Below, piece after piece: positions 3,367 to 30,572 of a stretch of DNA of 35,821 nt. Below the pieces are notes generated by a model that made no database searches, was not told where the DNA came from, and saw only the letters and a program-made list of their open reading frames with translations. Source of the DNA: a virus; the IMG/VR virus record IMGVR_UViG_3300045974_000130, positions 1 to 35,821 of that record. One strand, given 5' to 3'. Both the position numbers and the translations under genes were made by a program. Within the stretch, counting starts at the first letter, position 1. Each line of letters starts with the position of its first letter.

Positions 3367-3412
3367 CATTTCAATTAGTTAGGTTAATATTTACAGTTAG
3401 TTATATGGTATT

Positions 3413-3437
3413 GGTTCCCTCCCTGTTTCGCCCACCA
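3413..3437 (+). other. Candidate attP core: 3' end of a host tRNA
   Basis: GGTTC followed by CCCTGTTTCGCCCACCA looks like the end of a tRNA: the T-arm 3' strand CCTGT, acceptor strand TTCGCCC, discriminator A and CCA. No full tRNA precedes it. Tyrosine recombinase phages often carry such a tRNA 3' end at attP so that integration restores the host tRNA. The integrase starts 118 bases downstream and a terminator follows at once, as after a real tRNA gene. The exact crossover cannot be seen without attL/attR. Confidence 0.55.
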
Positions 3438-3442
3438 TATAC

Positions 3443-3482
3443 AAAAAAGCCTTTTAAGTCTTCGGATTTATTAGGCTTTTTT
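3443..3482. terminator. Bidirectional terminator with TTCG tetraloop
   Basis: AAAAAAGCCT (3443-3452) pairs with AGGCTTTTTT (3473-3482); the inner stem AAGTC/GATTT closes on a TTCG tetraloop. It works in either direction. It directly follows the tRNA-like end, so it may replace the terminator of the host tRNA after integration. It also separates repressor and integrase transcription. Confidence 0.8.
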
Positions 3483-3490
3483 GTTTTCTC

Positions 3491-3519
3491 TTTATATGTT
3501 TTGGTATCTATGGTACAAT
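3491..3519 (+). promoter_or_regulatory. Integrase promoter with embedded operator
   Basis: TTTATA (3491-3496), 17 bases and TACAAT (3514-3519) form a promoter 36 bases before the integrase ATG. The spacer contains TTGGTATCTATGGTA, closely matching the repressor-promoter operator TGGTACCTTATGGTA at 2618. Shared control of int and the repressor gene is the likely meaning. Confidence 0.6.
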
Positions 3520-3554
3520 ACATTGCACTTATAGAAATTACCAAGAGGTATATT

Positions 3555-4796
3555 ATGACAAAGAGTCACCCCTTTTTAGAGCTCCGGGGCAAAATTTATT
3601 ATTACAGAAAAAGAGTGCCACAAGACCTGCTTAAATTTTTCCACAAGGATAGATTAATAATCTCATTGCGAACCTCCAGATTGAACCTGGCGATAAAGGG
3701 AGTCAATTACTGGGATGATAAATGTGAATCTGTTTTCGCTCGACTTAGATACGGGAATCTATCGGAGTTGGATATCGCAACACAAACTGCGGAATTAGTT
3801 CCAGAGACAAAAAGCAAGAGAAAAGCCAGCTTGAAGATTTCTGATGCCTTCGATAGGTACGAGGCCAAAAGAGGCTCTAGATGGGCTCCAAAGACAAAGC
3901 AAGAATACGGATTATCCAAGGATATATGTTTGGAGTTCTTCAAGGATTCAGATGTACGTTCTATTAGCTTAGATAAGTGTTACGAGTATCAAGCCTTTCT
4001 GACTACCCTACCAAAGCGAGGCAAGGGCCAGACTGGAATAATAGATGGTGACACAGTATGTAAGCATTTAGGGAGATTTCGGGCTGCGTTGGCGTTAGCG
4101 ATGGCGGGTGGAGTGATATCAGTTAATCCCATGGCGGTAGTAACTCAGAATAAATCAACAGACAAGGAGGTGCCAAGAGTGCCATACGAACATGAAGATA
4201 TCAAGTTGATAATAGAGCTAATAATGGCTCAGGATAAAGACAAGAGGCCATCTCGCTACTGGGTGCCTTTGCTTGCTATGTATTCAGGTTGCCGTAAAGG
4301 TGAACTATGCCAGCTTTACCCTGATGACATCATTGAGGTTGACGGAATAAAGTGTCTGAGAATTACAGACGCAAGGCCAGACCAGAGACTAAAAAATAAA
4401 GCCGCTAAAAGGATAGTACCTATTCACAGAGTATTAATAGAGATTGGATTTTGCGAGTGGGTAGATTCCAAGGATAAAGATGTAAGGCTTTTTACAGACC
4501 TGTCACTTGCGCGTGATGGCTATGGTCATTCATTCAAGTGGTACGCCCCGGCCACTAATAAGCTGGTGCCAGATGAACGCAAGACCATGCATTCATTCCG
4601 TCATGGTGTGTCGACTATGCTGATGGAGCTTAAATTTCACTCTGTATGGCGTGCTGACCTTTTGGGCCACACTCGGCCCGGGAACCTAGAAACAGATGCA
4701 ACGTACACACACAAAACAAAGACCGAAACACTTAAACCAATGGTCGACGCAATAACTTACGGTGAAATTGACGCAATAATATTGCAAAAAGTGTAA
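3555..4796 (+). CDS. int: Tyrosine recombinase / integrase, 413 aa
   Basis: This enzyme would recombine attP with a host attachment site and excise the prophage. The ATG at 3555 has ribosome site GAGG; the longer frame from 3405 runs through the terminator and promoter and is rejected. The N-terminus (LELRGKIYYYRKRVPQDL) is the DUF6538-type arm domain, followed by a core-binding domain (about 90-195) and the catalytic domain. Visible catalytic residues are R247 (GCRKGEL), probably K280 or K282, H346-x-x-R349 (HSFRHG), H372 (LLGHTRP) and the nucleophile Y384 (ATYTHK). All expected residues are present, so it should be active. It sits beside the tRNA-like attP. Confidence 0.95.
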   Translation: MTKSHPFLELRGKIYYYRKRVPQDLLKFFHKDRLIISLRTSRLNLAIKGVNYWDDKCESVFARLRYGNLSELDIATQTAELVPETKSKRKASLKISDAFDRYEAKRGSRWAPKTKQEYGLSKDICLEFFKDSDVRSISLDKCYEYQAFLTTLPKRGKGQTGIIDGDTVCKHLGRFRAALALAMAGGVISVNPMAVVTQNKSTDKEVPRVPYEHEDIKLIIELIMAQDKDKRPSRYWVPLLAMYSGCRKGELCQLYPDDIIEVDGIKCLRITDARPDQRLKNKAAKRIVPIHRVLIEIGFCEWVDSKDKDVRLFTDLSLARDGYGHSFKWYAPATNKLVPDERKTMHSFRHGVSTMLMELKFHSVWRADLLGHTRPGNLETDATYTHKTKTETLKPMVDAITYGEIDAIILQKV

Positions 4797-4803
4797 AGTT
4801 TTC

Positions 4804-4832
4804 TTGACTTAACTTGCTGTTTTTGTTATAAT
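4804..4832 (+). promoter_or_regulatory. Strong plus-strand promoter after int
   Basis: TTGACT (4804-4809), 17 bases, TATAAT (4827-4832) is close to consensus. It points away from int into 4849-5234. Its transcript would be antisense to the small gene at 4849-5016 and would then reach the plus-strand membrane protein at 5234. It is on the lysogeny strand, so it may be active in the prophage. Confidence 0.6.
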
Positions 4833-4848
4833 TAATACATGTTATGGA

Positions 4849-5016
4849 TTAAAAATCGAGTTCCATGTCTACGCCCAGTTCCTCTAATAACACAAGAGTG
4901 CATCCGGGGTGTGTCCAGTAGCCTGTAAGGTTGGAATTGAAGGGATGATGTGTGTCGACAATCATTTCACAAACAGGGCATTTTTCCCACCGTGAAAAGT
5001 CGATTTTTTGGCCCAT
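4849..5016 (-). CDS. Small protein with CPVC motif, 55 aa
   Basis: An ATG at 5016 with the ribosome site AGGGGG opens a 55-residue frame: it begins MGQKIDFSRWEKCPVCEMIV and contains THPGC further on. The three cysteines and nearby histidines could bind zinc. A hairpin (5036-5061) lies just upstream of the ribosome site, and a -10-like TATAAT is found on the minus strand near 5066-5071. It is transcribed against int, and the strong promoter at 4804 would make antisense RNA to it. Function unknown. Confidence 0.6.
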   Translation of the reverse strand: MGQKIDFSRWEKCPVCEMIVDTHHPFNSNLTGYWTHPGCTLVLLEELGVDMELDF

Positions 5017-5035
5017 TTTTGCCCCCTTTTTGGAT

Positions 5036-5061
5036 TACTCAGTTATTTTACTCACTGAGTA
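5036..5061 (-). promoter_or_regulatory. 8-bp inverted repeat upstream of the 55-aa gene
   Basis: TACTCAGT (5036-5043) and ACTGAGTA (5054-5061) are perfect inverted arms 10 bases apart. They lie between a minus-strand -10-like TATAAT and the ribosome site of the gene starting at 5016. They could be an operator or a leader hairpin. Confidence 0.5.
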
Positions 5062-5163
5062 GATATTATACACGATTTTGTTGAATTTAGAGTATAATAT
5101 TTTTGAAAAAGATGGCTCACTACAGCGTAAGAAATAATAGCTTATTATACGTGACTCAAAAAA

Positions 5164-5183
5164 TTGTACCAAGTTATACCAAA
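5164..5183. promoter_or_regulatory. Repressor-type operator pair, third strong copy
   Basis: On the minus strand this reads TTTGGTATAACTTGGTACAA, very close to TTTTGGTATCTATGGTACAA in the integrase promoter. It lies between the minus-strand 55-aa gene and the plus-strand membrane-protein frame, so the same regulator may act on one of them. Confidence 0.5.
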
Positions 5184-5233
5184 AATCATAATACATATAC
5201 TTTCTTGCATACAGCCGAATGAAAGGCATATTT

Positions 5234-5401
5234 ATGTGCATATTAAAAACGCTATTAACCTACCTTTTTATGGGCATATTAATAGCGATTTTTATCGGTT
5301 ATTGTTTGCGGCCTTTTGTGCATCGTACAATCAAGCACCCTGCCCCACGTTTTGCGTCGACTAATCAAACAACCATCTTGTCAACTTTTTTAATTTCGTA
5401 G
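5234..5401 (+). CDS. Possible small membrane protein on the lysogeny strand, 55 aa
   Basis: A frame from ATG 5234 (weak ribosome site AAAGG 7 bases upstream) gives a hydrophobic helix (about residues 5-24, including LFMGILIAIFIGYCL) followed by a basic polar tail. An upstream ATG at 5219 adds five residues. Its last 37 bases overlap the end of the convergent phosphoesterase gene. Small membrane proteins beside int on the prophage-expressed strand are often superinfection-exclusion proteins. That role is only a guess, and the frame itself is moderately supported. Confidence 0.4.
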   Translation: MCILKTLLTYLFMGILIAIFIGYCLRPFVHRTIKHPAPRFASTNQTTILSTFLIS

Positions 5402-8719: not shown

Positions 8720-8962
8720 TTAAACTCCTGCCCTTCCAAATATGTCTGAGAATATTGCGTTGAAATCTGGCTTTGAATCAAAAGACGATGAAACCCATAC
8801 CATCCCGTTATTAACACCTAAACCAGTAGCCATTCCTTCACTCTCAGCCGGTTTGGTTTTAAAATACGGGTTTTTGATTTTGCATTTGTTTTTGCCTTTA
8901 CGATTCATGACACCCTGACCATAGGTTTTATTCTTATATTCTTTATTCTGTGGGCTGGACAT
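8720..8962 (-). CDS. Hypothetical protein of the duplicated GGACAT-repeat module, 80 aa
   Basis: The frame from ATG 8962 begins MSSPQNKEYKNKTYG and ends in a segment rich in F and D. A longer frame reaching 9103 would read through the GGACAT repeat array and overlap the upstream gene, so I prefer the shorter start, although its ribosome site is weak. A decayed copy with the same beginning (MSSLQNKEYKNKTY) lies at 23051-23254. That conservation supports a real protein-coding past; present function is unknown. Confidence 0.45.
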   Translation of the reverse strand: MSSPQNKEYKNKTYGQGVMNRKGKNKCKIKNPYFKTKPAESEGMATGLGVNNGMVWVSSSFDSKPDFNAIFSDIFGRAGV

Positions 8963-9034
8963 TGACTGGACACCGACATGAACAGTCCAGTTGACGTTCC
9001 AATGGACATCCACCTGGACATGTCCAATGGACAA
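8955..9034. repeat. GGACAT/ATGTCC repeat array, copy 1
   Basis: Eighty bases hold alternating TGGAC and GTCCA blocks 9-12 bases apart, including the palindrome TGGACATGTCCA and the next one CATGTCCAATGGACA. Two more arrays are at 23248-23314 and 23461-23557. The array covers the start of the 80-aa gene and runs up to the coiled-coil gene. It could be a protein-binding array or a recombination hotspot. Confidence 0.75.
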
Positions 9035-19967: not shown

Positions 19968-20435
19968 TTACAAACTCCAGAAATTTTGCCCGGTAATTTC
20001 AACTTCCGGAGCAGTGGGCCATAACTGAAAGCCGCCCGTTCTAAGAAGTTCTTCGTACTGGTCGCGGAACTGGTGACCCCACAACATCCACTGATTATTG
20101 TCATTAGGGTTGATTGCGTACTCATAAAAAATAGTAGCAATGGCCTTGTAACTGATACAATCCAATATCTGCTGCTCCGTGAATTCATCAGCATACGAAC
20201 CCGTCAACTCGTCCCCTTTAAAAAGCTGCTCAAAGTCGAGCTTTCTTTTATTTCTGAGGTCTTTTTTAAGCTCACGGAATGCGTAATCGATAAAATCCGA
20301 TACCGTCTTTGTGACTGTTTCGTCCTGCGTAGGGGGAATTGCCAGCGGGTCGCCCGGAACAATCTTAGTGCCGAGGATGTAGGTCGCAATATCGCCCCTG
20401 TGCTCCAGAACGTATGACTCTGTTGGCTTCATCAT
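19968..20435 (-). CDS. Head-tail connector-like protein, 155 aa
   Basis: This mostly helical protein lies between capsid and tail genes, in the place of head completion or connector proteins. It has two adjacent ATG codons (20435 and 20432). A conserved-looking segment is EQQILDCISYKAIATIFYEYAI near 96-117, split here by reading only its helix pattern. The function is inferred from position; no motif proves it. Ribosome site AGGAT upstream. Confidence 0.55.
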   Translation of the reverse strand: MMKPTESYVLEHRGDIATYILGTKIVPGDPLAIPPTQDETVTKTVSDFIDYAFRELKKDLRNKRKLDFEQLFKGDELTGSYADEFTEQQILDCISYKAIATIFYEYAINPNDNNQWMLWGHQFRDQYEELLRTGGFQLWPTAPEVEITGQNFWSL

Positions 20436-20438
20436 GGC

Positions 20439-20912
20439 TTAAATCCTGTCCATTGCTGGAACTGCTTTTGCCATCTCTGCCCGTATCGCAACCATCTTGC
20501 CTACCAGTGCTGATAAGCTGGTTACGTCGATTAAGCCTTCGAGAAGGGCAAATATTTGGCCGACTGCCGCAAATTGTGCCTTCACCTTGTTTGCAACGTT
20601 GGCGGCGTAGTAATCAGCAACGTGTCCATAAGCATCTGCCATGCTGTCAAAACCGGCCTCAATCAGAATCCGCTCACTGTCCTTCGTGGCGATTTCTTCG
20701 CCCATGGCTTTTAGGAACGGTACGAGGTCAACCAGCAATGCTCCCCTTTCTTTTGCCGTAAGGTGTGACACGTCTATGGTTTCGAACGGGTCGATACCGT
20801 ACTTGGTCAGCACTTGGTCTGCCATTGGCATCAGGGTGTTGCTATAGCCATTGATAGCGTCATAGATGTAATTATTGGCGGCTGCTATGGCTGAGGCTTT
20901 GCTATCAGACAT
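20439..20912 (-). CDS. Hypothetical virion-region protein, 157 aa
   Basis: This helical, alanine-rich protein lies between the small capsid-following gene and the connector-like gene. It has no membrane segment or motif that I recognise (for example KERGALLVDLVPFLKAMG near 56-73). Strong ribosome site AGGGGG. Its place suggests a head completion or structural role. Confidence 0.6.
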   Translation of the reverse strand: MSDSKASAIAAANNYIYDAINGYSNTLMPMADQVLTKYGIDPFETIDVSHLTAKERGALLVDLVPFLKAMGEEIATKDSERILIEAGFDSMADAYGHVADYYAANVANKVKAQFAAVGQIFALLEGLIDVTSLSALVGKMVAIRAEMAKAVPAMDRI

Positions 20913-20925
20913 CTGTTACCCCCTG

Positions 20926-21144
20926 TTACTTCTTGCCGTCTGCGGCTGCGTCTGCTGCTTTCTTGGCATCCTTTGTGTCTGCATCGCTGCCGGTTTTTGC
21001 GTCTTTGGTATCTGCGGCCGGAACAACAACGATGGTGCCATCATCAACAGCGTAGTCTTCACCGTATTCTGCGAAATCAGCGGAAAAGACATTTTTAAGC
21101 TTTTCGCCGGTTTTGAGGTTTATTACGTTTAAAAATGTGGACAT
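20926..21144 (-). CDS. Small virion-region protein with low-complexity tail, 72 aa
   Basis: The first 43 residues are compact (FLNVINLKTGEKLKN, then VDDGTIVVVPA), and the tail is an ADTKDAK-type low-complexity repeat ending in lysines. It directly follows the capsid gene and has ribosome site AAGGAG. Such a protein may be a head decoration or head-tail adaptor, but this is inference. A strong hairpin (21162-21187) separates it from the capsid gene. Confidence 0.6.
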   Translation of the reverse strand: MSTFLNVINLKTGEKLKNVFSADFAEYGEDYAVDDGTIVVVPAADTKDAKTGSDADTKDAKKAADAAADGKK

Positions 21145-21161
21145 TTCGAGCTCCTTTTAAT

Positions 21162-21187
21162 AAGGGGTAGGTGTTACCCTACCCCTT
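21162..21187 (-). promoter_or_regulatory. Strong hairpin between capsid and next gene
   Basis: AAGGGGTAGG (21162-21171) and CCTACCCCTT (21178-21187) form a perfect 10-bp stem with a 6-base loop just after the capsid stop. No T run follows on the minus strand, so it is not a standard terminator. It could protect the abundant capsid mRNA from 3' exonucleases or reduce read-through. Confidence 0.65.
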
Positions 21188-21213
21188 GCTGTAAGTGTTG
21201 GTATCAGCGTTGG

Positions 21214-22152
21214 TTACTTCACCACTGCTGCGTTCTTGATGCCGTTCAGACGACCAATTGCGGTGTCGCTGAATGCTGCCAGGCCGAGGTACCATTCTAC
21301 ACGGGTACGGTAGCAAGGCTTTGCGTCCTGCTCTCCGAGGTCACGTGCGCTGATAGGTCCGGACTGAATGCCGAGCAGGCCACCTTCGCCAACGTTTGCG
21401 CCGTAGATGGATGTAGAAGCTGCTGCACCACCACCTGGAGATGCTTCGGTGAAGGGAAGGATTGCGTTTTTGCCGCTGTCGTAGTTGACAACGTAGATAG
21501 GGCAATCGCCATATTTCGCGATTCTGCGGCCCCATGTGTCAACAGTCCAGTCGAGGTCTCCACCGACTGTCATGTCACGGCTTGCTGCTGTCAAGAGCCG
21601 ACGAACTGCCTTGCTCATGAACATGGAGTTGCAACCGATGACTGCATCAAGCAGCTCGTCGATTTTCAAGAGGGACAATGCGTCACCGCCAGCGGTTGCA
21701 CCGTTAGCAATGAGCTGGTTACCAGATGCAAGACGCTTCTGGAGACCGTCAAACTCTTTCGGATTGCCGGCGTGGTCGCCCTTGAACAGGACTTTTTCGA
21801 TGTTCAGGGCGATGCTTTTGATTTGCATTGCTTCCTGAGTAGCCCTTGCCTGCTGGCCCTGAGTCTTGACAATGAAAGCGTCAACGTCAAGGTCGCCACC
21901 GGCAATGTAGAGAGCTTCGAGGCCGGGAGCAACTGTGCCAGTCCCTTCTACGTAGCCTTCATTGACTCCACGGAATGCGGAACCCGGCAGGTTCTCTTCC
22001 TTGTTGAACTGAACGGCAGAGCCTGCGATGTTCTCGAACTGGAAAGCCCGGAGAATTTCAGAGTTGACTGCGAAAGAAGAGATAACGCCAGAAAGGAATG
22101 CGTTGCCTCCATTGATTGCCAGTTTGCTGGCTTCTGCGAGTGTAATTGCCAT
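21214..22152 (-). CDS. Major capsid protein, 312 aa
   Basis: The 312-residue protein has the composition and pattern of an HK97-fold capsid subunit: an N-terminal arm, a glycine-rich loop (GVNEGYVEGTGTVAPG near 62-77), a spine-helix region (ATQEAMQIKSIALNIEKVLF near 104-123), and a C-terminal part with VEWYLGLAAFSDTAIGRL. It follows a coiled-coil scaffold-like gene, the usual order. No protease gene was seen, so maturation may not need cleavage. Ribosome site AGGAGA. Confidence 0.85.
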   Translation of the reverse strand: MAITLAEASKLAINGGNAFLSGVISSFAVNSEILRAFQFENIAGSAVQFNKEENLPGSAFRGVNEGYVEGTGTVAPGLEALYIAGGDLDVDAFIVKTQGQQARATQEAMQIKSIALNIEKVLFKGDHAGNPKEFDGLQKRLASGNQLIANGATAGGDALSLLKIDELLDAVIGCNSMFMSKAVRRLLTAASRDMTVGGDLDWTVDTWGRRIAKYGDCPIYVVNYDSGKNAILPFTEASPGGGAAASTSIYGANVGEGGLLGIQSGPISARDLGEQDAKPCYRTRVEWYLGLAAFSDTAIGRLNGIKNAAVVK

Positions 22153-22183
22153 GACCTATCTCCTGTGTGTTTAAAGTGTGATT

Positions 22184-22765
22184 TTAGTTGCTTTTGTTGA
22201 ATCCGTACTCTCTACCAAGTCGCATGCGCTCAATAGGAGTGAGTTTCTCCAAGTCCATAGGCTTAGGCTTATCAACTTGGTCACGAGGTGAAGGGTTGCC
22301 GGTTGCTGCGAACAGTCCCTGTGCTTCTGCGTCCGCAATCAGTTCAAGTCTTTCGTCAGCTGGCAATTTCTTCATTTTCTCGTTTTCAAACAGTGCTCTC
22401 AGATTTTCTGGGATGCTCTTGATTTTAGCGTCGAGGACTTTTTGTAGCTTGGCCTCTGTCGCTGTGTCTTGTGCGTCCAGTCGCTCTTGCAGTTTTTCGA
22501 GTTCAGACTTAGCACCATCCCGCTTTTCAGATGCGGTTTTCATGTCTGCTTTCAGTCTGTCGTTTTCTTTCTGCACGTTTGCGAGTTGCGTGCGAATGGT
22601 TGCAAGGTCAGCGTCCGCCGTCCCTTTGCCATCTGCTACACCTGCTGCTCCGCCAGCTGCACCGTCCGATGCGCCGCCGCTTCCTTCTCCCTCACCGTCC
22701 GGTGTGGTTATCAATGCCGATGCCAGTATCGCGTCCACGGTGCCCTGTGCGTCTGCTTTCTTCAT
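22184..22765 (-). CDS. Scaffold protein, 193 aa
   Basis: An acidic, glycine- and alanine-rich N-terminal region (residues 20-50) is followed by a coiled coil at about 52-115 (LANVQKENDRLKADM, then KSELEKLQERLDAQ) and a C-terminal segment that could bind the capsid protein (PIERMRLGREYGFNK). This is the usual architecture of phage scaffold proteins, and the gene lies right before the capsid gene. Ribosome site AAAAGGAGA. A folded leader (22799-22893) precedes it. Confidence 0.8.
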   Translation of the reverse strand: MKKADAQGTVDAILASALITTPDGEGEGSGGASDGAAGGAAGVADGKGTADADLATIRTQLANVQKENDRLKADMKTASEKRDGAKSELEKLQERLDAQDTATEAKLQKVLDAKIKSIPENLRALFENEKMKKLPADERLELIADAEAQGLFAATGNPSPRDQVDKPKPMDLEKLTPIERMRLGREYGFNKSN

Positions 22766-22798
22766 GCGTAAATCTCCTTTTGATAAACTTTAAATTTT

Positions 22799-22893
22799 GC
22801 CGGTGCCTCTTGCTCGCGGGTGGAGGTCTTATGTTGGCCCATTCAACCTATTGAGGGTTGCCCTTCCACGTGGCAGGGTAGGAACTTACCGGC
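22799..22893 (-). ncRNA. Structured 5' leader of the scaffold-capsid operon
   Basis: The leader from the promoter at 22922-22950 to the scaffold gene is about 150 bases long. Arms GCCGGT (22799-22804) and ACCGGC (22888-22893) can close a 95-base fold. Inside are CAACC/GGTTG (22844-22860) and CCTC/GAGG (22806-22825) stems, and CCCT/AGGG arms near 22860-22880. Such a long folded leader is unusual in this compact genome and may control capsid translation or mRNA stability. Confidence 0.5.
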
Positions 22894-22917
22894 TATCTCT
22901 TTTGTTGTTTCAATGAT

Positions 22918-22950
22918 GTGTATTTTACACGTTCAGACCGTGCGTGTCTA
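22918..22950 (-). promoter_or_regulatory. Scaffold-capsid promoter with 26-bp element, copy d
   Basis: On the minus strand TAGACA (22950-22945), 17 bases and TAAAAT (22927-22922). The segment GCACGGTCTGAACGTG matches copies c and f. It would drive scaffold, capsid and probably the whole tail block. Confidence 0.7.
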
Positions 22951-23050
22951 ATCGGTGACAAAGATACGACGAGGAAAGCTCTAAATTTCGCGTTTAAGGG
23001 GTTTATGCACGGATGGGGTTATCAGGATATGGCTAATGGGGAGATAATGG

Positions 23051-23254
23051 CTAGGTGGTACGTTTCCGTTTCTTAAAACCTGGCTTTGAAAACGAGGATG
23101 AATTGTAATTCCTGTTTTCATAGCCCGGTTTTAGGTTTTGGTTCTAATAACGGGATTTTGGTTTTGAATTTAGCTTTGGTTTAGAGATTTAAGATTTGAT
23201 GCACAAATGAGCATATGTTTTATTCTTATATTCTTTATTCTGTAGGCTGGACAT
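23051..23254 (-). pseudogene. Decayed copy of the 80-aa GGACAT-module gene
   Basis: In the frame starting at ATG 23254 the reading begins MSSLQNKEYKNKTY, as in the gene at 8720-8962 (MSSPQNKEYKNKTY), and later has SSSFSKPGFKK against SSSFDSKPDF in the intact copy. Two in-frame stops interrupt it. About 27 bases just downstream of the ATG are also nearly identical at DNA level. It is a broken paralogue, and is followed upstream by the same GGACAT array as the intact copy. Confidence 0.7.
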
Positions 23255-23314
23255 TCAATGGACAGTCCAGTTGACGCTCCAATGGACGTCCACTGGACAT
23301 GTCCAATGGACATT
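23248..23314. repeat. GGACAT/ATGTCC repeat array, copy 2
   Basis: Sixty-seven bases with the same order of TGGAC and GTCCA blocks as at 8955-9034, including TGGACATGTCCA. It overlaps the start of the decayed gene at 23254. The adjoining 23220-23250 segment (about TATTCTTATATTCTTTATTC) is identical to the one beside copy 1, so the whole module was duplicated. Confidence 0.75.
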
Positions 23315-23317
23315 TTA

Positions 23318-23448
23318 AGCATCAAACGCTGTAAATACCTGTTTTTATTAGAACCGAATTTTTCGTGATTGAATTTTTGATGTATTTTGATGTGATTTTG
23401 ATGTTTAAGACTAATTTAGTCTGATTGCATCAAACGATTGTTTGATGT
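23318..23448. repeat. TTTGATGT iteron-like cluster with palindromes
   Basis: TTTTGATGT occurs at 23375, 23385 and 23396 (10-11 base spacing, one helical turn), and GTTTGATGT at 23440. CATCAAAC-GATT-GTTTGATG (23428-23447) is a perfect inverted repeat, and a single inverted copy is at 23318. A perfect palindrome AGACTAATTTAGTCT lies at 23408-23422. The region is AT-rich and non-coding. It looks like binding sites for a protein: an origin, partition or recombination site. Confidence 0.6.
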
Positions 23449-23460
23449 ACTTTTTTGACG

Positions 23461-23557
23461 TGTCCATGCGTTGTCCATAAAATGTCCAGAACTGGACATG
23501 ACATGGACAGTCCGTTGGATGCTCCACTGGACGTCCACTGGACATGTCCATTGGACA
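23461..23557. repeat. GGACAT/ATGTCC repeat array, copy 3
   Basis: Nearly 100 bases hold about ten TGGAC/GTCCA blocks, again with TGGACATGTCCA. It ends six bases before the stop of the methylase gene. Together with copy 2 it brackets the iteron cluster. Confidence 0.75.
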
Positions 23558-23562
23558 AATTA

Positions 23563-24474
23563 TCAATTAATCAATTTATGGTGCAACTCGCTGCTTGTTA
23601 ACCAGTCCATATTTCCACTTATAACTAACTCCCGCATCTCCACATTGTGGGTGCCTTTCATGGGAACAAGTGCCATGCTAAATCCCCTTGCGTTAGCCAT
23701 AGCCTCTACCTCTGGAGCGTCGTCGTACGTCATGATAAACTGCCCCTGTACCGCCGCCAGTGCATCAAACAAAGCTTCGTGGTCAAGTTGTGAGTGAGTG
23801 TAAAGCCGCTTTCCCGCTGATTTCTTGCTTGATGTATAAGGCGGGTCGACAAAAAACACCGCTTGTGGATTGCCGGCATGCTGCAAAATGGCCTGTATGC
23901 CGTCTGATTGCTCAATGGTCACCCTGTCCCTCATTGGTGCAATGACTTCTATACGTTTTCGCAAGGTGTCAGGATACCAGCGCGATAGCACGCCTTTGCC
24001 AGCTTCTCCATGCTTCAATAATCCGCTACCAGCCGCAAGGATTCCCCCGTGGTACGTTCTATTCTTAAGGATGGTGTGGAATGCCGCCTGTTCTATCGTT
24101 AACGGCTCCAGCGTGATTTCTGCGTTGATATTTTCAGGTGTAACATCAAAGGTCATAATGCGGTCGCAAAGGTTTTGCCAGTCGCCCTCTAAAATAGCCT
24201 TCCAGACTGCCGATACCTGCCCGTCAAGCTCAACCATAACAATCTGGTCAGCCAGTCGCTCATAAGCTGTGGTAAGGCTACATACGCCACCCCCTGCGAA
24301 TGGCTCAACAAACAACGCCGGCCTTTCTGGGAGTTCCAATAGCCACCGTCTGAGATATGGAACAAACCATGTCTTGCCGCCGGGATACCTAAAGGGGGAT
24401 AGTTGCTTTACTTGTGAGACATTAACTGGGGTCACCGTTCCTCCTTGTGTAGCGAATAGAGGAAGTTGTGACAT
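23563..24474 (-). CDS. DNA adenine N6-methyltransferase (D12 class, Dam-like), 303 aa
   Basis: Motifs are P27-FRYPGGK34 (N-terminal SAM region), FVEPFAGGGV at 55-64 (motif I) and D210PPY213 (motif IV), in the order of alpha-group N6-adenine methylases. I start at ATG 24474, whose A overlaps the nuclease stop (TGATG); a GTG one codon earlier is possible. The enzyme would methylate adenine in a DNA site that cannot be read from sequence. It forms an operon with the NotI-like nuclease, so the pair may act as a type II restriction-modification system. The genome itself seems to have no GATC, so a GATC specificity would have nothing to modify here. Confidence 0.9.
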   Translation of the reverse strand: MSQLPLFATQGGTVTPVNVSQVKQLSPFRYPGGKTWFVPYLRRWLLELPERPALFVEPFAGGGVCSLTTAYERLADQIVMVELDGQVSAVWKAILEGDWQNLCDRIMTFDVTPENINAEITLEPLTIEQAAFHTILKNRTYHGGILAAGSGLLKHGEAGKGVLSRWYPDTLRKRIEVIAPMRDRVTIEQSDGIQAILQHAGNPQAVFFVDPPYTSSKKSAGKRLYTHSQLDHEALFDALAAVQGQFIMTYDDAPEVEAMANARGFSMALVPMKGTHNVEMRELVISGNMDWLTSSELHHKLIN

Positions 24475-25310
24475 CACACGCCCCTCACTTTGCTGTATTT
24501 AGTTTGTAGTTGGCTTACAAAGTCGTCAATATCGCCCGGTTTCGGAGTAACTAAAGTCGATAAAACCTCTTCGTACTTAGTGTAAACTACCTTATCAAGA
24601 ACCAAGTGGTATTTATTTTCTTCTACATTTAACTGTAAATCATAGATAAACCACGCTAAATCTGAATCACTTTCAGCAACTGGGTTGAACAAATACTCTA
24701 TCGTTGCATAGAACTTGGTATGTAAAACAATAGCTGTCTTCTTGCCCCAATGGTTAAGGATTGCACCCTTAGATATTATCTGTGGGATTAATCGTTTTCT
24801 GCTTGATGACAAGTAGTCAGCTTTAGGGTAATTATACCCTTTTTTGAACTCATAAGCAAACTTATCTATTGAATCCATATAGGATTTATACGAATTTCTG
24901 ATATTTCCCGATACATAAACAGATTGAATTTCTACGGCTCCGAAATCAAGTATATTTCCATCTGCGTCGACCGATGCAAGAACTATATCGATGTTGCCAA
25001 CTGCCTTGCCTGATATGTCTTTAAGTCGTATTTCATAGAGGGGTACAACGATAGAATCAGGGGGAAAGAAAAACTCCGCTGTTTGATGTATGATGATGCC
25101 ACCTTCTCGAAATCTGCCAGGACAAACAACCGCCAAGTCGCCGCCTTCGTGAATAGAACACACACCCAGTGGGTCATTGTCTTTGTCTTTGGTGCATTTG
25201 ATACGTCGCTCATGGAATGGACAAAGGGTGTTGTTTCTGTCGTGGACTGCTTCGGGGGTGATGTTATCAGCGGGGTATCCGAAAACCTCGCCTAGTGGAT
25301 GTTTCGCCAT
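24474..25310 (-). CDS. NotI-family restriction endonuclease-like protein, 278 aa
   Basis: This protein probably cleaves double-stranded DNA at a specific site. Cysteines C30, C39, C51 and C63 (LCPF, IKC, GVCS, VVCP) match the four-cysteine metal site of NotI. The nuclease core shows D108 (GNIDIVL) and E127-I-Q129 (GAVEIQ), the E-x-Q form of the PD-(D/E)XK motif found in NotI. NotI itself is about 380 residues, so this one is shorter. It precedes the adenine methylase and overlaps it by one base. A nuclease-first order is risky without control; the hairpin at 25311-25352 may provide it. NotI's own partner methylates cytosine, so the site here likely differs. Confidence 0.8.
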   Translation of the reverse strand: MAKHPLGEVFGYPADNITPEAVHDRNNTLCPFHERRIKCTKDKDNDPLGVCSIHEGGDLAVVCPGRFREGGIIIHQTAEFFFPPDSIVVPLYEIRLKDISGKAVGNIDIVLASVDADGNILDFGAVEIQSVYVSGNIRNSYKSYMDSIDKFAYEFKKGYNYPKADYLSSSRKRLIPQIISKGAILNHWGKKTAIVLHTKFYATIEYLFNPVAESDSDLAWFIYDLQLNVEENKYHLVLDKVVYTKYEEVLSTLVTPKPGDIDDFVSQLQTKYSKVRGV

Positions 25311-25352
25311 TTGTGGGCTCCTTTATACCGATTGGCATAACAAAGCCCACAA
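25311..25352 (-). promoter_or_regulatory. Hairpin over the nuclease translation start
   Basis: TTGTGGGCT (25311-25319) and AGCCCACAA (25344-25352) are perfect 9-bp arms 24 bases apart. On the minus strand the near arm fills the gap between the ribosome site AAAGGAG (25324-25318) and the ATG at 25310. Folding would hide the start and limit nuclease synthesis; alternatively the arms are a protein operator. Confidence 0.65.
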
Positions 25353-25375
25353 GCTATATCAGTTTAAATCGTTTG

Positions 25376-25813
25376 TCATCTTTTTACAGCGTCGCGAATA
25401 TGCTCCATCACTCTACTGGAAACATAAGCCTTTTCTGCCGTGGTTAACGAAAACCAGCGCGAGATAAGCTCGTTATAGTAAGCCTTTTTCTGCTCGGCTT
25501 GGGAAGAAAAGCCAATCCTTCTAGCTGTAAGGGTTTTCTCCACTATCCCGATGTTCTGTATCATCTGCCCTGTAACATTAAGGTCACGGTGTCCCACCTG
25601 CTTGCCGTTAGCCTTGCGCCAGTCAGCATATCGTGGGCTGTATGCCTTCATCTGCCCATCTGAGCCACCACCTGCCGATACTCGCTTAACCATCATAGCA
25701 ATAACGTCTTGGGCTAGGACATCAAGGAACGACTGGTCATTAAGTGCCGACTTGAGTTTTGCAAGCCTAGCACGGACTTTTTCCAGACCAGTCACTGTAA
25801 GAGTGATTCCCAT
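25376..25813 (-). CDS. Neck / virion morphogenesis protein (gpG-like), 145 aa
   Basis: The start at 25813 overlaps the MuF stop (TAATG) and has ribosome site AGAGGTGA; the longer frame from 25846 overlaps the MuF gene. It begins MGITLTVTGLEKVRARLAKL, and ends in a helical tail. The pattern (tail-completion proteins: N-terminal helix, LNVTGQMIQNIG segment, HxRDLNVTGxM) fits the phage virion morphogenesis family. Position after the MuF-like gene agrees. The nuclease gene follows at once. Confidence 0.65.
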   Translation of the reverse strand: MGITLTVTGLEKVRARLAKLKSALNDQSFLDVLAQDVIAMMVKRVSAGGGSDGQMKAYSPRYADWRKANGKQVGHRDLNVTGQMIQNIGIVEKTLTARRIGFSSQAEQKKAYYNELISRWFSLTTAEKAYVSSRVMEHIRDAVKR

Positions 25814-26652
25814 TATTTCACCTCTACACCGTTGGCTTTTGCCCATCCCTCAGATACTGGAAGTAAGCGATGCCGGCAATTATAGCCACCGCAACTAATG
25901 CGGACATCTCCGGGTGCCTTGCCTTGCCATGACTTGCTATTCCATGACTCCACCTCTGCCTCTGCATAGACACCACCAACCCGCTTTCTGCAAAAGTCGC
26001 GTGTGGTCTTAATGATAGTTCCCGGGTAAAAGTAAAAGCCTGTTTTTGTCATTGTTGCTGCGTCCATGGTACGCGAAAACTGCATGATTGAGTCATGCGC
26101 CAGCCTTGAAATGTAGCGATAGGCGGGACTATCGGTTGCAATGATGGCCTTGAGCTCACTGATAAGCTGAGAATAAGGCACACCCATCAAAACGCTCTCG
26201 TATAGTGCCTGTTGGATGATATGCGCCGGTACAATAAATGGTTCATTTGTGAGATACGACAACTGGAAGCCCTGCAACTGGTTTAAAACCTCCACCTGCC
26301 CCGGTTGCCATGAAAAGCCGCCACCTGTTATGCCAGAATACAGCTTTTGAGTGAGTGGGATTAGGACAGCGTAAGACTCGACATATTCACGAACGGCTGA
26401 TGAATAACCTGAATTCTGCATGGTCTGGATAAGGTTATCGGAAGCGTTAAGCGCAAATTGCAAGGACTCAGCGCTGTACACAATACGTCCGGATTTAATG
26501 GTAAAGCCGGAAAGTATGTATGCCTCAACCTCTGCTAACATCTTCCCCATAAGGCTGTCAATATCAGTCAGAAAGGTGTTAGTGAGTTTGAGGCTGTGCT
26601 GGTCAATCTGGTTAACCAGCACCTCCAGTTCCTGTGGCGTAAGGTATTTCAT
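25813..26652 (-). CDS. MuF-like minor head protein, 279 aa
   Basis: The C-terminal part carries the MuF domain signature: RDFCRKRVGGVY near 221-232 and RISCGGYNCRHRLLPV near 254-269. MuF proteins bind the portal vertex and are needed for head assembly and DNA ejection; some carry toxin domains, but no extra domain is seen here. The N-terminal 200 residues are helical. The gene overlaps the next one by a base and follows the portal gene. Confidence 0.8.
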   Translation of the reverse strand: MKYLTPQELEVLVNQIDQHSLKLTNTFLTDIDSLMGKMLAEVEAYILSGFTIKSGRIVYSAESLQFALNASDNLIQTMQNSGYSSAVREYVESYAVLIPLTQKLYSGITGGGFSWQPGQVEVLNQLQGFQLSYLTNEPFIVPAHIIQQALYESVLMGVPYSQLISELKAIIATDSPAYRYISRLAHDSIMQFSRTMDAATMTKTGFYFYPGTIIKTTRDFCRKRVGGVYAEAEVESWNSKSWQGKAPGDVRISCGGYNCRHRLLPVSEGWAKANGVEVK

Positions 26653-26665
26653 GATTTGTTACCTC

Positions 26666-28120
26666 TTAAGCCGCCTGTTGATTCTGCTGGTCTGCGCCTG
26701 CTCCTGCTCCTGCCATAGCCTGCTCAAGCCTTGACTTCGCCACAGATAGCATAGAACCAGCCCCCTCTTTAGCGATAGCCTCCAGCATCTTGGAAATGTC
26801 GGAGTCATCCATTTCTGGGTTTTCCTGCTTAATGTACTGCGCCTTGCCAAGTACACCACTTGCCATCTGCTGCTGTGCAATCTGCCAGTCAGTGAGTCGG
26901 TCAGTCGGCAACGCCACTTCTTTGAATGTCGTGTACACAGTCGCATCGGTTGGCAATTTGTAGCCATTAGCATTAGCAAGCATAGCAGTCATACGGTACA
27001 GCTGCTGCTCAAAGCGTTTGGCGTTCTGCTGCCGTCTCTTCCTTGCTGTCAGGTTCCAGTTCTCTTGTACAACCAGCTTAAGTGCGCTGTCTGCCTGTGT
27101 AGCGTTGCCACCGTAGCGAATTGTTACACCCCACTGGTCACCTACACGCTCAATCACGCCATGCAACCAGTCTGTGAATTCCTTGACGTTGACTTCCGGG
27201 CTCTCATACTTAAATACGACATCTTTAACCATCATGTCCTTAGGCGGCTCAACTGTTGAGTCAGGGCCATTTACGAACCCGTCCGGAGTGCGGATGTTAC
27301 TAACTCTTGTTGCGAATGCCTGCCACCTTGCGGAATAGGCATAGATAGTGTCGAGAAGGTTTACAGTTTCATTAAGGGCAATCAGAGACTGCCACGGCTC
27401 ACCTGGGGGAAATATGCCCGAACGTGGGATTGACTTGTCATAAAGGAAAGCGGCGGGAATGCCACCGTACTTATGAGGGGCTGGCATGCCGTATGGTCGC
27501 AATGTACCACCAGCCGTCGAGATGTAATCGGTTACTGAGTCAGGGGTATACAGAGTGTAGCAATCCTCAGTCATTCCAAGCTCGTGAGGACCTTCTGTCA
27601 TAATAAGCATAGACCTGACCTGCCCCGTCTTCATGTCGCGGTCTACAGAGCAGTTAGAGCGGTCGAGTATGTTCCAGTGCACACTCTGTGTTTCTTCTAC
27701 CCACCAGCCAAGCGTGATACCAAGACCTAAAAGGCGCGATATCTTGTCGAGTTCAATCGCGGTGCCATCAAACGAAGAACGATAAAGCAAGTCCTCGTAT
27801 GACTCCGTTGCGGCCTCGTCCTTGGTCGTGGTCTTCATACTGCCACCAGCCGTCTTAAGGTACACTTCACGAGTTGGCGGCTCCAGATACGTCAAGGCTG
27901 TCTTCTCAATAACCATCTTTGTCAGCTCTTCGGTTACGTCCTTGAATTGCCGGTCTTCGTATTTCTTGACAATCTTGTACATCATATCTTTGTGGTGCAA
28001 AGACATGTTGCCATCCAAGAAATCCTTGGCTTTGAGGGCGGAACACAGCGGGAAGTTAAGGGGGCGCAACTGCCCTATCTGCTGGGTTTTGATAATCTGC
28101 AAGTGGTCGGTAAGATTCAT
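26666..28120 (-). CDS. Portal protein, 484 aa
   Basis: I chose ATG 28120 because it has ribosome site GGAGGG and lies after the promoter element at 28138-28163; the frame from 28150 would include that element. The 484 residues fit SPP1-like portals. Features include an N-terminal helix region, a long central region with ILDRSNCSVDRDMKTGQ, a hinge and a stem-like helix segment (TARKRRQQNAKRFEQQLYRM near 385-404), and a glutamine-rich tail. It sits between large terminase and MuF, as in most siphophages. Confidence 0.85.
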   Translation of the reverse strand: MNLTDHLQIIKTQQIGQLRPLNFPLCSALKAKDFLDGNMSLHHKDMMYKIVKKYEDRQFKDVTEELTKMVIEKTALTYLEPPTREVYLKTAGGSMKTTTKDEAATESYEDLLYRSSFDGTAIELDKISRLLGLGITLGWWVEETQSVHWNILDRSNCSVDRDMKTGQVRSMLIMTEGPHELGMTEDCYTLYTPDSVTDYISTAGGTLRPYGMPAPHKYGGIPAAFLYDKSIPRSGIFPPGEPWQSLIALNETVNLLDTIYAYSARWQAFATRVSNIRTPDGFVNGPDSTVEPPKDMMVKDVVFKYESPEVNVKEFTDWLHGVIERVGDQWGVTIRYGGNATQADSALKLVVQENWNLTARKRRQQNAKRFEQQLYRMTAMLANANGYKLPTDATVYTTFKEVALPTDRLTDWQIAQQQMASGVLGKAQYIKQENPEMDDSDISKMLEAIAKEGAGSMLSVAKSRLEQAMAGAGAGADQQNQQAA

Positions 28121-28137
28121 GGGGTATACCCTCCGGT

Positions 28138-28163
28138 GTGTATTATTCACATGTAAACTGTGT
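28138..28163 (-). promoter_or_regulatory. 26-bp promoter/operator element, copy e (portal)
   Basis: The minus strand reads ACACAGTTTACATGTG followed by AATAATACAC. It lies 18 bases upstream of the portal ATG, between the terminase stop and the portal ribosome site. The -35 region is weak (AATACA), so activation by a phage protein is likely. It would start a head-gene transcript separate from the terminase. Confidence 0.65.
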
Positions 28164-28168
28164 ATGTA

Positions 28169-29458
28169 TTATCCGTAAGCGGCGGCTTCTATGATGTAGT
28201 AGAACAGATAACGGGCGGCGGTCGTGATATGCTGCTCAAATATCTCGATTTCCTGAGTAGATGAACCCGGCTTGACTGCTACTGTGTTCATGCCTTTATT
28301 CAGGGTCTTACACTTCTTAGGATTGACCAGAAAGCGACGTGTACCGTCTACCGTCTTTATGTATCTTCTTAATGCGTTCTGGCAGTCCTTAACCAGTGGG
28401 TTTGATGGCGGTACGTACAGCGAGATGTTGTCATATCCAAGATGTTTCATTTCACTAACAAGCTCCTGATAGTCGGACAGTTCCGGGGAGTCTTTGCCAG
28501 CCGTGCCGCTTGCATCGCCATATATTCTAATGTGCCGCTTCTTGTACTGTGGGTATCTCTCGGAAAATTCCACCGCTGCCTGACGTGCGACTGCGTTATC
28601 AAGCACTATCTCGTCAACTGCAATGTAGGTGTCGCCCTTGCGTAACATGATGACGGATGATAGCGGCTTGTAGTTGAAGTCATGCGCCCAGTAGATGTCG
28701 CCCTCGTCGTGCATGGTGACATCTGTGTGGTTCTGCTCATTGTAATCTGGGTACACTCTACCTGTTGGCTGGACAAACTTTGCCAGGTACTCTTGGTCAT
28801 ACATCAGGGTGTCCATGGACGACTTGGCCTCTTCAATCTTGGCCGGACTCAATACGTCTTCTGATGTCCAAGTGTGGTATGAGTGATATCCGCCCGGATG
28901 TTCAATTGCATATTGACAACGCTCGTACCAGTGATTCATGCCCTCTGGGACGCTCTCAAAGATACCAGTTGCAACCCTACCATCTGGGAACTCTGTATCT
29001 AATGCCGGCTTGAGGTTTGCGAACCATGCATGTGATTTTAACTTCGCATATTCAGTGATTAAAAAGTGATTCCACTTGACACCCTCGCATCTATCAGGCT
29101 CATCAAGGCCCATGAAGTGCATTTCGCAACCATTCTTAAGCGTAATCACCTTATCTGATAAGCTGATATCCTCGATAAATGGCAGGTTGAGGATGATTGC
29201 ATCACCCCACAAGACTTTCTTAACCTGCTGGTGTGTTGGCCCCCCTAGCATGAACTTGTCGAATGGTTGCGCCCATGCTTTTAGGCATGTTTTCTTAAGG
29301 GCAAGGTCAGTCTTTCCAGAACGTCGGCCGGAATTCAACCACTGCAAGATTGCTTCGTCTTCCCAGAATGCCAACTGTGCAGGATTGAACCTGTACTGAT
29401 TCCATGCGGCGGTATGCTTCGCTATAACAGCGGGTGTAAGTTTGATTTTGAGTGACAT
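28169..29458 (-). CDS. terL: Terminase large subunit, 429 aa
   Basis: This packaging motor has the ATPase Walker A at G44RRSGKT50, Walker B at about 131-136 (HFLITE) and a C-terminal nuclease region with RIYGDASG near 315-322, whose aspartate is one of the metal ligands. It cuts and pumps DNA into the empty head through the portal. The ATG at 29458 overlaps the small-subunit stop (TAATG). Length is normal for the family. Confidence 0.92.
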   Translation of the reverse strand: MSLKIKLTPAVIAKHTAAWNQYRFNPAQLAFWEDEAILQWLNSGRRSGKTDLALKKTCLKAWAQPFDKFMLGGPTHQQVKKVLWGDAIILNLPFIEDISLSDKVITLKNGCEMHFMGLDEPDRCEGVKWNHFLITEYAKLKSHAWFANLKPALDTEFPDGRVATGIFESVPEGMNHWYERCQYAIEHPGGYHSYHTWTSEDVLSPAKIEEAKSSMDTLMYDQEYLAKFVQPTGRVYPDYNEQNHTDVTMHDEGDIYWAHDFNYKPLSSVIMLRKGDTYIAVDEIVLDNAVARQAAVEFSERYPQYKKRHIRIYGDASGTAGKDSPELSDYQELVSEMKHLGYDNISLYVPPSNPLVKDCQNALRRYIKTVDGTRRFLVNPKKCKTLNKGMNTVAVKPGSSTQEIEIFEQHITTAARYLFYYIIEAAAYG

Positions 29459-30039
29459 TATTCCGACCCTGCAGTGTCTATGGGGCTGTTAGGGCCAGAC
29501 AATGGGACTCCGCCACTTCCCGTATTTAAAGGATTAACACCCGGCTTAGGAGATACGAATATGCCCTGTTTCAACTTCGCGGCGTGGTCAATCATCATGT
29601 CGACCAGCATATCTACACCCTCTGGTGTGTCTTTGGATTCTCTCCACTTGTCAGGCTGTCTGATGCGCAACCACGTCAAGCATGCCTGTGCCTCCGGGGA
29701 TAACTTGCGGGTCTTGCGCTTGATACGCTCAATGTTGCCGCCAGTGGTTGAATTGTTGCCGCCCTTTTTGTCTGGCTTTACAACAACCTCTGTGTCGGTG
29801 ACCTCCCGCTCCTTGCAGATGGATAGCAGGTTGTCTTCAACTACAGAGTCCCAAAAATCCTTGGAGGTGGACATCGCCTCCGAAAACTTGGCATACTTCT
29901 TTTTCCATAAGTAAAGAGTCGACATGGTAATGCCGAACCTGCCGGCGACGTACTCGTCGTCATGCCCCCACCGCGAATAGAACTTCGCAAGCTGGCAGTG
30001 GAACTCTTCCTCATATTTTACTGGGCGGCCTCCTGCCAT
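29458..30039 (-). CDS. terS: Terminase small subunit, 193 aa
   Basis: The N-terminal 55 residues contain a helix-turn-helix-like segment (YVAGRFGITMSTLYLWKKKY) that would bind the packaging site. The middle is helical and oligomer-forming in relatives, and the C-terminal tail is proline- and glycine-rich. It lies directly upstream of terL with a one-base overlap and overlaps the ParB-like gene in the same way. The coupling suggests equal expression. Confidence 0.85.
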   Translation of the reverse strand: MAGGRPVKYEEEFHCQLAKFYSRWGHDDEYVAGRFGITMSTLYLWKKKYAKFSEAMSTSKDFWDSVVEDNLLSICKEREVTDTEVVVKPDKKGGNNSTTGGNIERIKRKTRKLSPEAQACLTWLRIRQPDKWRESKDTPEGVDMLVDMMIDHAAKLKQGIFVSPKPGVNPLNTGSGGVPLSGPNSPIDTAGSE

Positions 30040-30572
30040 TACTTGCCTTCCTTCTTGCTTTTCTTACACTCAACCCGACATCCACAATCCGGGCAAATGT
30101 GGAACTTGCCCTCTCCGCTGCCGCTGCCTTCTCCCTCGCCCTCAATTGGTGGCGGTGGTGCTGCCGTAAACATCATTTCAACTTCTTTCAGGTCAAAGCC
30201 TGTGATTTCAATATCTGGAAGTATGCCGCTGTCTAACTCTTCCATCAGAGCCTTTAACCCCGGAACGTCCCACTCGTTGCTTATCTTATTCAAAGCCAGG
30301 TTTAAGGCTTTTTCGTGTGCCTCGTCGACATCGACAACAGAACAGTCAACCTCGACAACGCCCATTGCCTGCAAAACCTTTAGCCTCTGGTGTCCACCAA
30401 TTACAACGCCCTCACGGCCCTTGTAAGCGTTTATGATGACCGGTTCTACCATGCCATAGGTCTTGATTGACTTCTCAATCCTGCGCCACTCTGCGTCGCC
30501 TGCTTTGATGTTCTTGCGGGGATTGTAGATAGCGGGAATCAAGTCTTTTATGAGTCGGGTTTCTATTTGCAT
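30039..30572 (-). CDS. ParB-like nuclease-domain protein with zinc-binding tail, 177 aa
   Basis: The N-terminal 120 residues match the ParB/sulfiredoxin fold (NPRKN at 17-21, then VIGGHQRLKVLQAMG). A proline-rich linker and a GEGEG low-complexity run lead to a CPDCGCRVEC zinc motif. Proteins of this kind commonly sit just before terS in phages and prophages, often near methylases, and may bind or process DNA at the packaging site. It is fused to a zinc knuckle here, which is less usual. Confidence 0.8.
   Translation of the reverse strand: MQIETRLIKDLIPAIYNPRKNIKAGDAEWRRIEKSIKTYGMVEPVIINAYKGREGVVIGGHQRLKVLQAMGVVEVDCSVVDVDEAHEKALNLALNKISNEWDVPGLKALMEELDSGILPDIEITGFDLKEVEMMFTAAPPPPIEGEGEGSGSGEGKFHICPDCGCRVECKKSKKEGK

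What the first reader, a model, noticed from the sequence alone, without database searches (positions are those of the whole stretch)
24474..25310. NotI-family nuclease in a phage head operon
NotI homologues are usually chromosomal restriction enzymes. Here the four-cysteine site and D108/E127-x-Q129 core are intact, and the gene is set between neck and scaffold genes. It may destroy competing phage or unmodified DNA, or protect the lysogen.
Basis: partly seen in the sequence, partly recalled or inferred. Interest (0 to 1): 0.75.

Follow-up and report, generated by a model that had tools for sequence, protein, structure and literature searches.

The report
Phage-borne NotI-type restriction-modification gene pair
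A temperate-looking bacterial virus carries a NotI-type DNA-cutting enzyme next to its matching DNA-methylating enzyme in its capsid-gene operon, so it owns a complete self/non-self DNA defence kit; such kits are well known in bacteria and plasmids but uncommon in phages.

Summary
The nuclease is real. The 278-aa minus-strand ORF 24474-25310 matches Pfam NotI (E 2e-46), keeps all four cysteines and the E93/D108/E127-x-Q129 core, and its predicted fold matches NotI-DNA crystals best (Z 10.2). The same pair lies side by side in 24 other fetched loci (two near-duplicates): Chloroflexota, Thermus, Aeromonas and Variovorax plasmids, Bdellovibrionales MAGs and three other viral contigs, mostly nuclease first. 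So this is a complete type II restriction-modification system, not a lone nuclease. A related phage (TerL 88% identical) lacks the pair but keeps the same 38-nt RBS hairpin before similar repeat-rich non-coding DNA, suggesting an accessory slot, filled here and empty there. An adenine methylase must protect an A-containing site, so the target is probably not NotI's GCGGCCGC (inference). Likely role: destroying unmodified competing DNA or stabilising the prophage; expression and specificity are untested. New member of a known kind; the late-operon position and sequestered nuclease RBS are unusual.

The parts
24474..25310 (-). R: NotI-family restriction endonuclease, 278 aa
   Evidence: PF12183 E 2.2e-46; Cys4 and catalytic residues invariant; NotI top fold match
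23563..24477 (-). M: D12-class adenine-N6 DNA methyltransferase, 304 aa from GTG 24477 (303 aa from ATG 24474); overlaps R by 4 or 1 nt
   Evidence: PF02086 E 1.4e-10; phrog_56 E 4.5e-28; FRYPGGK, EPFAGGG, DPPY motifs; fold like Mcbe1 and E. coli Dam
25306..25354 (-). Hairpin that pairs the Shine-Dalgarno of R; 38 nt of it identical in related phage L033
   Evidence: -27.1 kcal/mol, z -4.0; L033 copy; SD mean unpaired 0.15
22766..23562 (.). Non-coding region with two 71-nt dyad repeats (TGTCCA/TGGACA), directly after M; same layout after the leader in L033
   Evidence: repeats; comparison with L033
25376..25846 (-). Flanking gene: neck1 / tail completion
   Evidence: phrog_26 E 8e-6
22184..22765 (-). 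Flanking gene: head scaffold
   Evidence: phrog_1793 E 6e-5; 43% identical to the gene before the L033 capsid gene

Best explanation
A complete two-gene type II restriction-modification system carried as an accessory cassette in the head operon of a temperate-looking tailed phage. Supported by sequence and structure: a NotI-fold nuclease with intact Cys4 site and catalytic residues, followed by its co-inherited adenine-N6 methyltransferase. Inferred: the methyltransferase marks phage and host DNA at an A-containing site and the nuclease cuts DNA without the mark, so the cassette destroys competing unmodified phage or plasmid DNA and/or penalises loss of the prophage. Also inferred: the hairpin over the nuclease ribosome-binding site keeps nuclease output low while the methyltransferase starts from its own site, making a nuclease-first order safer in a newly infected, unmodified cell. 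Confidence is for a functional R-M pair; for the competitor-destruction role alone about 0.5.
For: NotI family match, residues and fold; methyltransferase directly downstream; same pair adjacent on one strand in 24 other loci, in 14 of 15 Chloroflexota loci, in a Thermus plasmid and in three other viral contigs; related phage L033 lacks both genes; leader hairpin.
Against: No activity, methylation or expression data. R has the longest branch in the R tree and lower GC than M, so decay cannot be ruled out. AF2 confidence is low over the cysteine region. No clear promoter, so expression in the lysogen is unknown. R-first order without a control gene is risky for the host if R is made early.
Confidence: 0.85

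Rival explanations
1. Anti-restriction methyltransferase beside an inactive nuclease: the phage keeps M to evade host restriction and R is a decaying passenger.
For: Solitary MTases are far commoner than REases in phages (PMC4176335). R is on a long branch and its RBS is sequestered.
Against: R is open and keeps every invariant residue of the family; the pair stays together across loci.
Confidence: 0.1
2. A PD-lambda-5-like prophage defence system rather than an ordinary type II R-M system.
For: M's best PADLOC model is PD-Lambda-5_B, E 2.5e-39. The authors describe PD-lambda-5 as a compacted prophage RM+Abi system (PMC9519451).
Against: R matches a PADLOC type II REase model and NotI. No PD-Lambda-5 partner model hit R or the neighbours scanned.
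Confidence: 0.03
3. A free-standing homing-type nuclease that spreads the head segment, with the methyltransferase there by chance.
For: Nuclease genes between late genes can be homing elements (general knowledge); the related phage lacks the gene.
Against: The nuclease is of a restriction-enzyme family and is almost always paired with the same methylase.
Confidence: 0.02

Closest known systems
NotI restriction endonuclease (PF12183; PDB 3bvq, 3c25)
   Same: Family, fold, four cysteines, D/E-x-Q catalytic core
   Different: Shorter (278 vs 383 aa) and remote in sequence; paired with an adenine MTase, so the site probably differs from GCGGCCGC (inference)
Thermus brockianus plasmid pTbrSNM4-1c NotI-family nuclease + DNA adenine methylase (L003)
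   Same: R 45% and M 46% identical, same order, overlapping genes
   Different: Plasmid, not a phage operon; no RBS hairpin like this one
R-M pair of viral contigs L015, L016, L017
   Same: R 44-46% and M 48-53% identical, R then M
   Different: Different phage backgrounds; no other window protein had a convincing homologue there in that comparison
Pseudomonas phage vB_Pae_U8 NotI-like nuclease + C5 methyltransferase
   Same: NotI-family nuclease overlapping a methylase gene in a phage
   Different: Cytosine-C5 methylase, M before R, at the genome end; R only 27% identical
PD-lambda-5
   Same: Methyltransferase component matches PD-Lambda-5_B
   Different: No partner found; R is NotI-like

Membership tests
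NotI family (PF12183) | Profile match above the curated cut-off | tested here: met
   158.6 bits vs 22
NotI family (PF12183) | Four cysteines and D/E-x-Q catalytic residues | tested here: met
   Invariant in 11 sequences, aligned with NotI 3bvq
NotI family (PF12183) | NotI fold | tested here: met
   3c25 first by Foldseek and VIA-align Z 10.2; model weak over the cysteine region
NotI family (PF12183) | Metal bound by the Cys4 site; cleavage of a defined site | not testable with these tools
   Needs purified protein
Type II restriction-modification system | Adjacent, co-inherited nuclease and methyltransferase genes | tested here: met
   Pair adjacent on one strand in 24 other loci
Type II restriction-modification system | Both enzymes act on the same site and M blocks R | not testable with these tools
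   Needs methylome and digestion assays
D12-class adenine-N6 MTase (PF02086) | Profile match plus FxGGG and DPPY motifs | tested here: met
   41.8 bits vs 22; motifs read; Dam-like fold
Dam subfamily (TIGR00571) | Score above the curated cut-off | tested here: not met
   34.1 bits vs 114.85
PD-Lambda-5 | PD-Lambda-5 partner protein beside the B component | tested here: not met
   M hits PD-Lambda-5_B, but R and the neighbours scanned hit no partner model

The most novel reading that the evidence does not exclude
The head operon holds an exchangeable cargo slot (RBS-hairpin leader, cargo, dyad repeats). The hairpin acts as an RNA gate so that the nuclease is made only at a set phase of infection, letting the phage destroy co-infecting DNA during lytic growth rather than as a resident defence of the lysogen. 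The nuclease would be a NotI relative with a new, A-containing recognition site.
Probability: 0.15. Interest if true: 0.6.

Novelty: new member of a known kind. Interest (0 to 1): 0.42.

Why it matters
Complete restriction-modification systems are rare in phages (nine in 831 phage genomes in one survey, PMC4176335), so a compact, apparently intact pair inside a late operon is a testable case of phage-borne DNA defence. NotI-fold nucleases paired with an adenine methylase form a widespread group, for which I found no characterised member here, and which may hold new rare-cutting specificities. The related phage with an empty slot gives a natural control.

Tried and rejected
Close relatives of the phage: megablast of 20000-30000 and viral-contig scans with the portal and MCP found nothing; TerL found L033 and L034. 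A single-sequence viral-contig scan with R found nothing; the alignment found three. phmmer of R alone against the PDB gave only chance hits; the profile found NotI. No Rfam match. The leader was found in viral contigs only on the contig that L033 comes from. Promoter and terminator scan not clearly above chance. Phylum searches around G001 and G002 (5 and 17 genomes) added no new member. Literature searches for NotI relatives and phage-encoded R-M gave little of use. BFVD gave only weak nuclease-like matches. Predicting the site from genome avoidance was not attempted: a rare-cutter site has no statistical power in 36 kb. The host was not identified.

Full report
Observation. The ORF at 24474-25310 on the minus strand encodes 278 aa in an open frame. 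It matches Pfam NotI with E 2.2e-46, far above the curated cut-off. An 11-sequence alignment shows C30, C39, C51, C63, E93, D108, E127 and Q129 invariant. A profile of that alignment finds NotI itself in the PDB (3bvq, E 1.5e-8), aligning D108/E127-x-Q129 with NotI D160/E182-x-Q184 and the four cysteines with NotI's (NotI numbering counted by hand). The AlphaFold2 model (mean pLDDT 66, weak over the cysteine region and residues 131-170) matches NotI-DNA complex 3c25 first by Foldseek (E 1.5e-6) and by VIA-align (Z 10.2 over 195 residues; next entry that is not NotI 7.0).

The gene directly downstream (23563-24477), overlapping the nuclease by 1 or 4 nt depending on its start codon, is a D12-class DNA methyltransferase. 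Evidence: PF02086 E 1.4e-10, phrog_56 DNA methyltransferase E 4.5e-28, motifs FRYPGGK / EPFAGGG / DPPY, and best fold matches to Mcbe1 and E. coli Dam. It does not pass the NCBIfam dam cut-off (34 bits vs 115).

The two genes are a cognate pair. The closest plasmid relative, on Thermus brockianus pTbrSNM4-1c, has an annotated NotI-family nuclease (45% identical) overlapping a DNA adenine methylase (46%) in the same order. Aeromonas and Variovorax plasmids have the same pair, with M 53% and R 29-30% identical. In a draw of 301 genomes from the phylum of the Chloroflexus MAG (L014), 27 have a NotI-family match. Of the 15 loci fetched from that draw, 14 carry the adenine methylase beside it; the exception is a short contig-end locus. 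Over all fetched loci, 24 other places have both genes on one strand, R first in 22 and M first in the two Bdellovibrionales MAG loci; two of the 24 look like near-duplicates, L012 of L011 and L030 of L014. Among 50,697 phage records the best matches to M are only about 24-30% identical, so M is not a generic phage methylase that happens to sit there. Other NotI-family members pair with C5-cytosine methylases on plasmids and in Pseudomonas phage vB_Pae_U8.

Phage context. The window is a virus record of 35,821 bases. Order of transcription on the minus strand: ParB-like, TerS, TerL, portal, MuF-like, neck1, nuclease, methylase, 797-bp non-coding region, scaffold, major capsid, tail genes. A tyrosine integrase (3405-4796) suggests a temperate phage. 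Three further viral contigs (L015, L016, L017) carry the same R-M pair in different backgrounds.

A natural empty site. L033 is a related phage (TerL 88%, portal 51%, MCP 53% identical) in which neck1 runs into scaffold and no R or M is found. L033 nevertheless keeps a 38-nt stretch identical to the leader in front of R. There it is followed by a 9-codon ORF and by non-coding DNA with duplicated dyad repeats, a layout like the region after M in the window. The slot lies before neck1 in L033 and after it in the window, so either the slot or neck1 has moved. Since phage-type DNA lies on both sides of the pair, a chimeric assembly is unlikely. That the slot exchanges cargo is an inference from two genomes.

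RBS hairpin. The leader folds into a stable hairpin (-27.1 kcal/mol, z -4.0; 0 of 200 shuffles as good) that pairs the Shine-Dalgarno of R (mean unpaired 0.15). The eleven other R loci examined have weaker upstream structure (-3 to -17 kcal/mol). Because L033 keeps the hairpin without R, it is not specific to R. A possible effect is low nuclease translation while M starts from its own site; this is inferred only.

Mechanism. Best reading: a type II R-M system. M methylates adenine in an A-containing site (from the D12 class; inference) and R cuts unmodified copies. NotI's own site GCGGCCGC (general knowledge) has no adenine, so the specificity probably differs. Role: destroying unmodified competing phage or plasmid DNA and/or stabilising the prophage. 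Promoter predictions were not clearly above chance, so whether the pair is expressed in the lysogen or only with head genes is open.

Novelty. R-M systems are rare in phages (nine in 831 genomes, denser in prophages; PMC4176335) but known, and relatives of this very pair sit in plasmids, chromosomes and other viral contigs. It is a new member of a known kind. The late-operon slot and hairpin-gated nuclease are unusual but unproven. R is flagged as a long branch in the R tree and has lower GC (0.41) than M (0.50), so its activity must be tested.

Noticed in passing
window 22766-23562 and 8852-9034; L033 13737-14262: Dispersed intergenic repeats rich in TGTCCA/TGGACA dyads, two copies after M and a third (about 76-83% alike) near 9 kb; L033 has an analogous duplicated dyad region with different dyads. 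Could be operator or replication/partition sites; function unknown.
   Followed up: partly
window 30039-30572: ParB-like gene just before the terminase that matches the N-terminal part of phage and type II methyltransferase models (phrog_498, PDLC03229), without a methylase domain.
   Followed up: no
window 24429-24450: A second strong Shine-Dalgarno (AAGGAGG) and GTG lie inside the start of M, giving a possible second translation start (read).
   Followed up: no
window 4797-5364: 568-bp region without an obvious gene after the integrase, possibly around the attachment site.
   Followed up: no
L002 / PP003920.1 38443-40568: Pseudomonas phage vB_Pae_U8 carries a NotI-like nuclease, annotated only as hypothetical, overlapping a DNA-cytosine methyltransferase: a second kind of phage-borne NotI-family R-M pair.
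   Followed up: partly
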